Origin: Asticcacaulis biprosthecium C19
GTDB lineage: Bacteria; Pseudomonadota; Alphaproteobacteria; Caulobacterales; Caulobacteraceae
Reading direction: 5' to 3'
Assembly (NCBI RefSeq): GCF_000204015.1
Contig: NZ_GL883077.1
Coordinates: forward strand, 697,687 to 760,943
Length of the DNA: 63,257 nt
This document shows positions 57,403 to 59,711 of the stretch, piece by piece; positions within the stretch are counted from its first letter, which is position 1, and every line of letters begins with the position of its first letter. Under the pieces are notes generated by a model. The model did not search any database and was not told the origin of the DNA. It saw nothing but the letters and a program-made list of their open reading frames with translations. Made by a program: the position numbers and the translations under genes.

Positions 57403-57544
57403 TCCCTCTCCCCACCTGAGGGGAGAGGACGAGAGCGGAACGAAGTGAACGCGATCGGATAAGGGGTTGAGGATGTTCGGCGTCTACAGTTTCAGGCCGA
57501 ACCAACCCCTCACCCCACCCTCTCCCCTCAAGTGGGTAGAGGGA
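57403..57544. repeat. 142-bp imperfect palindromic element (copy B)
   Basis: TCCCTCTCCCCACCTGAGGG on the left pairs with CCCTCAAGTGGGTAGAGGGA on the right. GAGAGG, GGGGTTG and TTCGGC also have inverted partners nearer the centre. It is related in style, but not closely in sequence, to the elements at 29368 and 59452. Confidence 0.7.
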
Positions 57545-57687
57545 GTTTTCGTACAACGCCTTCAATAAGTTAAAGTCAGTCCTTGGTCGCTGCTGTCATC
57601 GTAAGGCAGCACCAATCCTGTTACTGTTGCAACATTATCCCGGACTGTGGCTTGTAATCCTCGATCGCAGGTGTTATCTGCCCGGTC

Positions 57688-57729
57688 ATGACCAGCTACG
57701 TCTATGAATCGTATTATATCACCGCATAG
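57688..57729 (+). CDS. Tyr-rich leader peptide of the EF-Tu paralogue
   Basis: A 13-codon frame, ATG 57688 to TAG 57729, encodes MTSYVYESYYITA with four Tyr codons, two adjacent. Its stop lies 4 nt before a pair of mutually exclusive hairpins and about 50 nt before an intrinsic terminator. This is the layout of amino-acid-sensing attenuators. The ribosome-binding site is weak (GCAGGTG about 16 nt upstream). Translation is inferred, not shown. Confidence 0.55.
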   Translation: MTSYVYESYYITA

Positions 57730-57730
57730 C

Positions 57731-57808
57731 GTCTCTCGTTGACCGAGAGGCGAGGCCTCTCACGTGTTCGTCAGAACCCCTGGCAGGTCTCTCCTCCAGG
57801 GATTTTTT
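57731..57808 (+). promoter_or_regulatory. Attenuator module 1 with intrinsic terminator
   Basis: Hairpin 1:2 pairs CTCTCG (57733-57738) with CGAGAG (57744-57749). Hairpin 2:3 pairs GAGAGG (57745-57750) with CCTCTC (57756-57761), so they cannot coexist. The terminator pairs CCCTGG and AGG (57778-57783, 57785-57787) with CCT and CCAGGG (57793-57801) and is followed by six T. GAGAG can also pair with CTCTC in the terminator loop. Confidence 0.65.
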
Positions 57809-57810
57809 GT

Positions 57811-57828
57811 GCCCGGTTTCCACCGGGC
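57811..57828 (+). other. Hairpin before the second leader ORF
   Basis: GCCCGG pairs with CCGGGC around TTTCCA. It lies between terminator 1 and the ribosome-binding site of the second leader ORF and might affect its translation. Confidence 0.5.
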
Positions 57829-57848
57829 GACCAGAAGGATCGAACCCC

Positions 57849-57938
57849 ATGCTGACCTCGCCGGTCTTCATCACCTCGGATAGCGAACGTGCGCAGGCTC
57901 TGCGCGCCGTCGCGGCCGCATGGGCCTTCGCAACCTGA
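57849..57938 (+). CDS. Second leader peptide of the EF-Tu paralogue (29 residues)
   Basis: ATG 57849 follows a good ribosome-binding site (AGAAGGA, 57833-57839). The product begins MLTSPVFITSDSERAQALRA and ends AWAFAT. It has a single Trp five codons before the stop and no run of one amino acid. The stop at 57938 is 2 nt from a set of competing hairpins and about 60 nt from terminator 2. The end of the ORF could hold a ribosome-arrest sequence; this is an inference. Confidence 0.6.
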   Translation: MLTSPVFITSDSERAQALRAVAAAWAFAT

Positions 57939-57939
57939 C

Positions 57940-58026
57940 GCTCCGAGTCCTTTCGACCCGGAGCCGCTGATACGGACTCCGGGCTTGATCTTCTATCAAC
58001 CCGCCGGTCCGTCCGGCGGGTTTTTT
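57940..58026 (+). promoter_or_regulatory. Attenuator module 2 with intrinsic terminator
   Basis: GCTCCG (57940-57945) pairs with CGGAGC (57959-57964). The overlapping CCCGGAG (57957-57963) pairs instead with CTCCGGG (57977-57983), so the two are exclusive. A perfect 9-bp terminator stem (57999-58007 with 58013-58021) and six T (58021-58026) follow. The EF-Tu-like gene starts 125 nt further on, with GGAAG about 13 nt before its ATG. Confidence 0.7.
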
Positions 58027-58151
58027 CGTTTCGGGCCGCGCACGCCGCGCGGTCCGCACAAGTTTGGCGCGCCAATGCCATGGCCGTCGAATCCAGTCTG
58101 ATCATCTGGGTTCGTCGGCGCTCTAAAAACAAAGGAAGTAAGCGTGTAATT

Positions 58152-59336
<1,185 letters not shown>

Positions 59337-59343
59337 AGCGAAG

Positions 59344-59377
59344 CGCCCGGCGTTGGGTTCCAACGCCGGGCGTTTTT
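59344..59377 (+). terminator. Intrinsic terminator of the EF-Tu paralogue
   Basis: A 13-bp perfect stem (CGCCCGGCGTTGG, 59344-59356, with 59360-59372) with a 3-nt loop is followed by five T. Confidence 0.95.
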
Positions 59378-59451
59378 GACCGGAATCGCACTCTCCTGCC
59401 GTGGTAACGTGGAGTGATACCAACGGACGAAAAGGCTGACACATCGAACGT

Positions 59452-59639
59452 AAGAGGACCCCTCCGCCTCGACGCGCTTCGCCCTTTGGGCTCGCTTGCT
59501 CGGCACCTCCCCATTTAAAATGGGGACGAGAAGAAACTATTGAACATATTCTTTTTTCTCCTCCCCATCTCTTCGATGGGTAGGTGGCGAGCAAGCGGAG
59601 ATCGAAGATCGTAGCGCGTCGAGACGGAGGGGTCCTCTT
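59452..59639. repeat. 188-bp imperfect palindromic element (copy C)
   Basis: The ends AAGAGGACCCCTCCG and CGGAGGGGTCCTCTT are perfect complements, and TCGACGCGCT, GCTTGCTCG and CACCT also pair. Outer ATACCAAC (near 59417) and GTTGGTAT (near 59666) may be extra arms. CCTCCGCCTCGACGCGCT and CACCTCCCC are shared with copy A at 29368. It fills most of the 375-bp gap 59337-59711, which has no other gene. Confidence 0.75.
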
Positions 59640-59711
59640 GCGGAAAGAATGTCAAAGTCAAAGTGGGTTGGTATGAGACCTTATAAACCGCCACTTAAAA
59701 GGCATTCCGAT

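What the first reader, a model, noticed from the sequence alone, without database searches (positions are those of the whole stretch)
57600..58151. Two tandem attenuators in the leader of an elongation-factor gene
Between a possible promoter near 57630 and the EF-Tu start there are two successive modules, each with a short ORF, overlapping mutually exclusive hairpins and a perfect intrinsic terminator. Serial attenuation of a tuf-like gene is not known to me. The design would make EF-Tu2 expression depend on ribosome stalling twice, fitting a sensor of translation trouble such as drug-trapped EF-Tu or scarce charged tRNA.
Basis: partly seen in the sequence, partly recalled or inferred. Interest (0 to 1): 0.85.

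Follow-up and report, generated by a model that had tools for sequence, protein, structure and literature searches.

The report
Two-step sensor guarding spare EF-Tu
A spare copy of an essential protein-making factor appears to be switched on only when ribosomes fail to finish two short decoy genes in a row, a control region kept across related bacteria while its letters changed, which would let a cell bring in a substitute when its normal factor is blocked.

Summary
Between a conserved promoter (57652-57679) and a divergent EF-Tu gene (58152-59336) lie two modules, each a short ORF, mutually exclusive stems A:B and B:C, and an intrinsic terminator. In both window modules 0 of 100 shuffles matched the combined stems. 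Among 15 loci with a readable leader, 15 have module 1 and 9 have module 2 with its terminator. In an unconstrained search, strand A of the best exclusive pair starts -1 to +5 nt from the stop codon in 24 of 24 modules, in module 2 sometimes with completely different letters.

Most likely mechanism: a ribosome on the stop codon hides A, B:C forms and transcription ends; a ribosome held earlier, or absent, lets A:B form, the terminator's 5' arm is sequestered and transcription continues. Two in series would give a tight off state.

EF-Tu2 is a rare, patchily distributed paralogue. It is altered in 16 of 16 copies at positions 160, 216, 259 and 333; 216 and 259 are printed GE2270A contacts, 160 and 333 recalled resistance sites. 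This suggests a drug-tolerant spare induced by failure of the normal EF-Tu. Switching, signal and resistance are inferred, not shown. A third conserved RNA element before the start codon is unexplained.

The parts
57652..57679 (+). promoter: -35 TTGTAA (57652-57657), 16-nt spacer, -10 TTATCT (57674-57679)
   Evidence: TTG and G-TA invariant in the 14 leaders aligned (G679 was not put in); sequence read
57688..57729 (+). leader ORF1, MTSYVYESYYITA, starting 8 nt after the -10 box (possibly leaderless)
   Evidence: reading frame kept without indels in G009
57730..57752 (+). module 1 stem A:B, arms 57730-57738 and 57744-57752 (9 pairs)
57745..57761 (+). module 1 stem B:C, arms 57745-57751 and 57755-57761 (7 pairs), shares 7 nt with A:B
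57778..57808 (+). module 1 terminator T1: stem 57778-57801, T run 57803-57808
   Evidence: equivalents in 15 of 15 readable leaders (window and G009 set by hand)
57849..57938 (+). leader ORF2, MLTSPVFITSDSERAQALRAVAAAWAFAT, with AGAAGGA upstream
   Evidence: frame kept in G009
57940..57964 (+). module 2 stem A:B, arms 57940-57949 and 57955-57964 (9 pairs)
57957..57983 (+). module 2 stem B:C, arms 57957-57963 and 57977-57983 (7 pairs)
57982..58002 (+). module 2 possible antiterminator C:D, arms 57982-57989 and 57995-58002, takes up the start of T2
57998..58026 (+). module 2 terminator T2: 10-pair stem 57998-58022, T run to 58026
58061..58119 (+). third element E3: TTGGCGCGCCAA-type palindrome and long hairpin 58083-58119 with apex TGATCA (58099-58104)
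   Evidence: (134 of 144 cells paired in 12 of 16 loci, shuffles mean 100, sd 3.7)
58152..59336 (+). EF-Tu2, 394 aa, divergent EF-Tu paralogue
   Evidence: (TIGR00485 535.4 bits, cut-off 522.4)

Best explanation
The leader carries two ribosome-mediated transcription attenuators in series that hold an accessory, probably drug-tolerant EF-Tu off while translation elongation is healthy. RNA polymerase starts above ORF1. A ribosome that completes ORF1 sits on the stop codon and covers strand A; B then pairs with C, terminator T1 forms and the transcript ends. If the ribosome is held before the last codons, or never arrives, A pairs with B, which frees C, and the terminator's 5' arm is sequestered, so polymerase goes on. 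ORF2 and T2 repeat the test. Only when translation fails at both is EF-Tu2 made. Since EF-Tu2 differs at antibiotic-contact positions, the likely natural trigger is inhibition of the housekeeping EF-Tu (elfamycin-type drugs) or another shortage of ternary complex. Shown by sequence comparison: parts, order, offsets, mutual exclusivity, conservation. Inferred: translation of the ORFs, switching, trigger, resistance.
For: Module 1 in 15 of 15 and module 2 with terminator in 9 of 15 readable leaders. Searched from 59 nt before the stop to the terminator, the best pair of stems sharing B has its strand A starting -1 to +5 nt from the stop in 24 of 24 modules. Module 2 of G679 keeps A:B, B:C, C:D and D:E with unrelated letters. 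With nascent RNA folded before the terminator's 3' arm exists, its 5' arm is less free when the ribosome edge is upstream (about 0.27 in module 1, 0.32 in module 2) than at +10 to +14 past the stop (about 0.48 in both); mean contrast 0.220 in module 1 (15 loci; shuffled sets mean 0.011, sd 0.033, max 0.078) and 0.158 in module 2 (9 loci; mean 0.021, sd 0.043, max 0.179). ORFs and post-stop regions are 90-96% identical between the window and G009, the 60 nt above ORF1 55%. Promoter conserved above ORF1. EF-Tu2: GTPase motifs intact; R333G in 16 of 16 (R in 87 of 88 other EF-Tus), Y160 to Q/H in 16 of 16 (Y in 84 of 88), E259Q in 16 of 16 (E in 88 of 88), D216 to G/A in 16 of 16 (D in 88 of 88); D216 and E259 are GE2270A contacts, E259-R223 the locking salt bridge (PMC8183687, passages). 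Patchy presence: 2 of 25 genomes of the genus, 6 of 390 of the family.
Against: At equilibrium the terminator is predicted in most states (locus means 0.67-0.97), so the switch rests on folding during transcription. The window's own module 1 shows little contrast (0.08; 25 of 100 shuffles as good), as do G009, G679 and Albitalea module 1 and five of nine module-2 loci (G382, G202, G435, G573, G679); for module 2 at least one of 100 shuffled sets (max 0.179) exceeds the observed mean of 0.158. C:D in module 1 is short and varied, and in the window's module 1 it does not reach the terminator arm. Six of 15 leaders lack the second terminator, so two are not needed everywhere. Positions 160, 333 and 334 as resistance sites are recalled; 124, 226, 230, 257, 275, 316, 329, 375 and 378, also recalled as resistance sites, are unchanged in 16 of 16. 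No expression data.
Confidence: 0.7

Rival explanations
1. Amino-acid-specific attenuators: module 1 senses uncharged tRNA-Tyr and module 2 uncharged tRNA-Trp, in the manner of biosynthetic leaders.
For: ORF1 of the window has four Tyr in 13 codons; Tyr stands five codons before the stop in 10 of 15 module-1 ORFs and Trp in 5 of 12 module-2-like ORFs, against 2.2% Tyr and 0.6% Trp in nine genes of the window.
Against: No run of one codon in most leaders; other amino acids at that place in 5 of 15 and 7 of 12; EF-Tu is not an aromatic amino-acid gene; the peptides otherwise change freely (window against G009 ORF1: four codons differ, all changing the residue).
Confidence: 0.15
2. The attenuators are real, but EF-Tu2 serves starvation, a toxin that attacks EF-Tu or tRNA, or another general translation stress, not antibiotics.
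For: Any elongation failure would trip the leader; Streptomyces tuf3 is described as expressed only under stress (PMC12309360, passages) and belongs to a regulon answering translation-targeting antibiotics in general (PMC7157823, passages). In the open reading frames printed around EF-Tu2 I saw no shared partner (neighbours were not run against family libraries).
Against: Fixed changes fall on drug-contact positions, while T382 and residues 59-60 are unchanged (as toxin or protease sites these are recalled).
Confidence: 0.22
3. T1 and T2 are plain terminators that clear read-through from upstream, or make small RNAs, and EF-Tu2 has its own promoter below T2.
For: Strong terminators; a conserved element E3 lies below T2 and could be a DNA operator.
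Against: The only promoter I saw conserved lies above ORF1 (the region below T2 was scanned by consensus only); ORFs, stem offsets and mutual exclusivity are kept with changed letters; six leaders lack T2 but keep T1, and four of these six keep E3.
Confidence: 0.05

Closest known systems
Tandem attenuators of the mgtCBR leader of Salmonella (PMC3641672, abstract and outline)
   Same: two short ORFs and two attenuators in one leader, each read by a ribosome
   Different: mgtM and mgtP answer different signals (ATP, proline) that act additively; here both modules have the same build, each with its own terminator, and guard an elongation factor
rimP leader with a second terminator in tandem, several Gammaproteobacteria; rpsL leaders of the rpsL-rpsG-fusA-tufA operon (PMC2965389, passages and section 8)
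   Same: premature terminators, for rimP sometimes two in a row with a potential antiterminator, above translation genes, one operon including tufA
   Different: the passages seen describe no leader ORF and discuss r-protein binding for rpsL; not a stand-alone extra tuf
Streptomyces EF-Tu3 / tuf3 (PMC12309360 and PMC7157823, passages)
   Same: extra EF-Tu, expressed under stress, reported GE2270A-resistant
   Different: tuf3 is activated by the transcription factor WblC, whose own gene has a uORF attenuator; here the attenuators sit directly on the tuf gene, and the group is proteobacterial. Kinship to tuf3 was not tested; one Streptomyces plasmid EF-Tu, not known to be EF-Tu3, lacks the main altered positions
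Antibiotic-responsive leaders such as bmrCD, mef/mel, msrD, ARE-ABCF genes, and ermB with two leader peptides (search listings with abstract starts only)
   Same: ribosome trouble on a leader ORF raises expression of a tolerance gene; ermB uses two leader peptides
   Different: ermB is translational attenuation; those genes encode pumps, rRNA methylases or ribosome-protection factors, here the product would replace the blocked target

Membership tests
Ribosome-mediated transcription attenuator | promoter, short ORF, then intrinsic terminator before the gene | tested here: met
   translation of the ORFs itself not shown
Ribosome-mediated transcription attenuator | mutually exclusive stems placed so that ribosome position can decide | tested here: met
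   24 of 24 modules, strand A -1 to +5 nt from the stop
Ribosome-mediated transcription attenuator | antiterminator that takes up the terminator's 5' arm | tested here: inconclusive
   clear C:D in module 2 of the window, G009, G247, G250, G202, G679; weak or absent in most module 1; fold contrast weak in 4 of 15 and 5 of 9
Ribosome-mediated transcription attenuator | read-through changes with translation in the cell | not testable with these tools
   needs reporters or Term-seq
Amino-acid biosynthesis attenuator (trp/his type) | run of regulatory codons for one amino acid | tested here: not met
   the window's ORF1 has four Tyr, relatives outside its close group do not
EF-Tu | passes the curated EF-Tu model and keeps GTPase motifs | tested here: met
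   (TIGR00485 535.4 against 522.4)
Drug-tolerant accessory EF-Tu (EF-Tu3-like in function) | extra copy besides a housekeeping EF-Tu | tested here: met
Drug-tolerant accessory EF-Tu (EF-Tu3-like in function) | insensitive to EF-Tu inhibitors | not testable with these tools
   only residue changes seen
Rfam families | match at gathering score in the leader | tested here: not met
   in 57600-58160 only RF02837 at 19.5 bits, below its cut-off of 49.5

The most novel reading that the evidence does not exclude
A horizontally moving, single-gene drug-tolerance unit that carries its own sensor: two serial attenuators act as a coincidence gate that measures whether EF-Tu can still deliver aminoacyl-tRNA, and release a target substitute (EF-Tu2) only when it cannot. 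A third RNA element (E3) with a self-complementary apex loop would add a further, still unknown, control step at translation of EF-Tu2.
Probability: 0.45. Interest if true: 0.86.

Novelty: new variant of a known kind. Interest (0 to 1): 0.74.

Why it matters
If right, a bacterium senses failure of an essential factor by the failure itself, with no protein regulator, and answers with a substitute for that factor. It would be a case of a stand-alone tuf gene under ribosome-mediated attenuation, with two gates of the same logic in series, and a possible reservoir of tolerance to EF-Tu drugs in proteobacteria. It would also give a natural reporter for ternary-complex shortage.

Tried and rejected
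Tyrosine or Trp sensor: weighed and kept only as a rival. Sensor of tRNAs reading NAY codons (as for some anticodon nucleases, recalled): rejected, 47 of 299 codons in module 1 and 31 of 345 in module 2 against 13.7% background. Known Rfam element: none. Other copies of module 1 in the own genome (150 of 2340 candidates scored): the next matches have E 0.0086 and 0.0094 and lie just below an S4-like and an ExbD-like gene (names recalled from the sequences), so they may be ordinary terminators; not pursued. E3 elsewhere: searched in 20 genomes (14 with EF-Tu2, 6 without; 150 candidates scored in each): nine EF-Tu2 leaders match at E under 1e-10 and G247's at 4.2e-4; G250, G502, G569 and G679 have no strong match; the best match away from EF-Tu2 is E 0.0024 (most of these leaders went into the model). 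RNAalifold on the module-1 alignment found only the terminator; loop lengths shift that alignment, so stems were counted per sequence. A Streptomyces plasmid EF-Tu shares none of the main altered positions. Neighbourhoods: looked at as open reading frames only; EF-Tu2 was not flagged by the script in L133, L134, L135, L138 and L141.

Limits of the counts. Leader ORFs were chosen by eye among all ATG ORFs listed. The 16th locus (G593, L125) is cut by its contig end and is left out of leader counts. L126, L127 and L129 have a module-2-like ORF without a clear terminator and are left out of module-2 fold counts (9 loci), though they are among the 12 peptides; a weak terminator candidate in L127 (-11.0 kcal/mol) was dropped by hand. 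Terminators of module 1 in the window and G009 and of module 2 in G435 were misplaced and set by hand. Stem searches looked for A only within about 16 nt of the stop and for C near B; one search lifted this and gave the same strands. The promoter alignment holds 14 of 15 leaders (G679 not put in). The E3 count uses 12 of 16 loci: L128 and L039 (bulged stems), L126 and L127 (no such hairpin seen) were left out. Loci are related, so counts are not independent events. The 88 comparison EF-Tus are those that happened to fetch. Novelty rests on the paper searches, in an open-access library only.

Full report
What is there. The window's gene at 58152-59336 (+) encodes a 394-residue EF-Tu that passes the curated EF-Tu model (TIGR00485, 535.4 bits, cut-off 522.4). 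The same genome has another EF-Tu gene, matched at 49% over residues 141-393, with part of it reading as N; full-length EF-Tus of the other species of the genus are 55-57% identical. So the window's gene is a divergent extra copy, here called EF-Tu2. Upstream are a phoB-like gene and a small cupin-like gene (names recalled from the sequences), then about 770 bases before the EF-Tu2 start.

Leader anatomy. A promoter, TTGTAA-16-TTATCT, lies at 57652-57679. ORF1 (57688-57729) starts eight bases after the -10 box, so it may be read without a leader. Its stop is followed at once by strand A (57730-57738), B (57744-57752), C (57755-57761) and terminator T1 (57778-57801, T run 57803-57808). ORF2 (57849-57938) has an AGAAGGA upstream and is followed by A (57940-57949), B (57955-57964), C (57977-57983, its antiterminator part 57982-57989), D inside 57995-58002 and terminator T2 (57998-58022, T run to 58026). 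T1 has a bulge; T2 is perfect.

Is it chance? For each module the region between stop and terminator was shuffled 100 times keeping dinucleotides. In the window 0 of 100 shuffles reach the observed A:B plus B:C strength with shared B, in module 1 and again in module 2; over the 24 modules the number reaching it ranges from 0 to 8 of 100. Searches looked for A only near the stop; when the search runs from 59 bases before the stop to the terminator, the best pair of stems sharing B is the same and its A starts -1 to +5 bases from the stop in 15 of 15 module-1 and 9 of 9 module-2 loci. Between the window and its nearest relative G009 the post-stop regions are 96% and 92% identical, the ORFs 90% and 92%, the spacer 82%, the 60 bases above ORF1 55% and the stretch before EF-Tu2 78%. 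Neither ORF has an indel, though the spacer does; four codons of ORF1 differ and all four change the residue, and of seven in ORF2 four do, so frame and place seem to matter more than the peptide.

Relatives. EF-Tu2 occurs in 2 of 25 genomes of the genus (by identity), 6 of 390 of the family (E at most 1e-160), 10 of 398 sampled from the order (1e-150), 2 of 385 from the class and 1 of 398 from the phylum, the window itself; these samples overlap. Two further family searches gave no new locus (5 of 60; 2 of 105). The window's copy is 92% identical to one from another family (G435) but about 82% or less to copies in other genera of its own family, which points to horizontal transfer. This gives 16 loci, 15 with a readable leader.

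Conservation of the leader. 15 of 15 leaders have module 1; 9 have module 2 with a terminator (window, G009, G247, G250, G382, G202, G435, G573, G679); G502, G569 and G676 have a second ORF without a clear terminator; in G604, G784 and Albitalea I found one module. In module 2 the letters turn over (window GCTCCGAGTC/GACCCGGAGC, G247 GGGGCTGCGGAC/GTCCGGAGCCCC, G679 CTTTCAGAC/GTCTGAAAG) with the build unchanged. The distance from stop to T run is 67 to about 94 bases (three set by hand). The promoter is conserved above ORF1: TTG and G-TA are invariant in the 14 leaders aligned.

How it probably works. I folded the RNA as it would stand just before the 3' arm of the terminator is made, with a ribosome's front edge at different places. 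When the edge is at or before +2 from the stop, the terminator's 5' arm is mostly taken up (free about 0.27 in module 1, 0.32 in module 2); at +10 to +14, where a ribosome on the stop codon would reach (recalled footprint), it is free at about 0.48; from about +18 to +26 it is taken up again, and it is freed once more when the edge passes C. Against shuffles of the post-stop region the mean contrast is 0.220 (shuffled sets mean 0.011, sd 0.033, max 0.078) for 15 module-1 loci and 0.158 (0.021, sd 0.043, max 0.179) for 9 module-2 loci; so for module 2 at least one of 100 shuffled sets exceeds the observed mean. A ribosome that finishes the ORF thus favours the terminator, and one that is held earlier, or is missing, favours read-through. 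The effect is not seen in every locus: the window's module 1 gives 0.08 (25 of 100 shuffles as large) though its module 2 gives 0.31 (1 of 100); G009, G679 and Albitalea module 1 and G382, G202, G435, G573 and G679 module 2 are also weak. Equilibrium folding of the finished RNA favours the terminator in most states (means 0.67-0.97), so the argument rests on folding during transcription. In series the two gates should multiply.

What is sensed. Apart from the Tyr-rich ORF1 of the window's close group I saw no run of one codon. Tyr stands five codons before the stop in 10 of 15 module-1 ORFs and Trp in 5 of 12 module-2-like ORFs. With that codon in the ribosome's A site the front edge would still leave A free, so these scarce codons may make the gate more sensitive; this is inference. 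A general shortage of ternary complex is the signal that fits all the leaders.

What the product suggests. GTP-binding motifs are intact. D216 and E259 are among the strongest GE2270A contacts and E259 forms the salt bridge with R223 that locks the drug (PMC8183687, passages); E259 also touches tRNA A76 (PMC6950810, passages). Positions 160 (kirromycin) and 333/334 (pulvomycin) as resistance sites are recalled; some searches gave me no paper that prints them. Other recalled sites (124, 226, 230, 257, 275, 316, 329, 375, 378) are unchanged in 16 of 16. The closest precedent is Streptomyces tuf3, said to be expressed only under stress and to give a GE2270A-resistant protein (PMC12309360, passages), in the WblC regulon (PMC7157823, passages). 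EF-Tu2 resembles it in role; kinship was not tested.

A third element. Between T2 and the EF-Tu2 start lies E3 (58061-58119): a TTGGCGCGCCAA-type palindrome and a long hairpin, seen in 14 of 16 loci with the apex TGATCA or TGGCCA in 10 of these 14, itself self-complementary. In 12 of 16 loci, those with stems without bulges, 134 of 144 cells of the first 12 pairs are standard pairs, against 100 (sd 3.7, max 110) when the partners are dealt anew (related sequences inflate this test). A model of E3 finds no second copy below E 0.002 in 20 genomes. It may act on translation start, as an RNA dimer site, or as a DNA operator; I cannot tell.

Known and new. Two ORF-linked attenuators in one leader are known at mgtCBR of Salmonella, for two different signals (PMC3641672, abstract); tandem terminators above rimP and terminators above rpsL operons that include tufA are known (PMC2965389, passages and section 8); leader-ORF control by drug-stalled ribosomes is known for pumps, methylases and ABC-F factors, with two leader peptides at ermB (search listings). 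I found no report of leader-ORF attenuation on a stand-alone tuf gene or of two like gates in series on one (searches; open-access library only). I rate it a new variant of a known kind.

Noticed in passing
58061-58119: Third conserved element E3 (palindrome plus hairpin with a self-complementary apex) before the EF-Tu2 start; in 20 genomes searched no match away from EF-Tu2 is better than E 0.002; function unknown.
   Followed up: partly
57403-57544: Inverted-repeat element (26-nt arms) between the upstream gene and the promoter; 67 matches in the own genome, both strands counted.
   Followed up: partly
59449-59642: Second, different inverted-repeat element just below EF-Tu2; 72 matches in the own genome, both strands counted. 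The two elements bracket the EF-Tu2 unit.
   Followed up: partly
57688: ORF1 begins eight bases after the -10 box in the window and 7 to 10 bases after it in G009, G435 and G573, so it may be translated from a leaderless RNA.
   Followed up: no
57712-57714 and 57921-57923: A Tyr codon (module 1) and a Trp codon (module 2) sit exactly five codons before the stop, as in 10 of 15 and 5 of 12 leaders; reason unknown.
   Followed up: partly
59344-59377: Terminator-like hairpin with a T run just below EF-Tu2 (read by eye), so the unit looks monocistronic.
   Followed up: no
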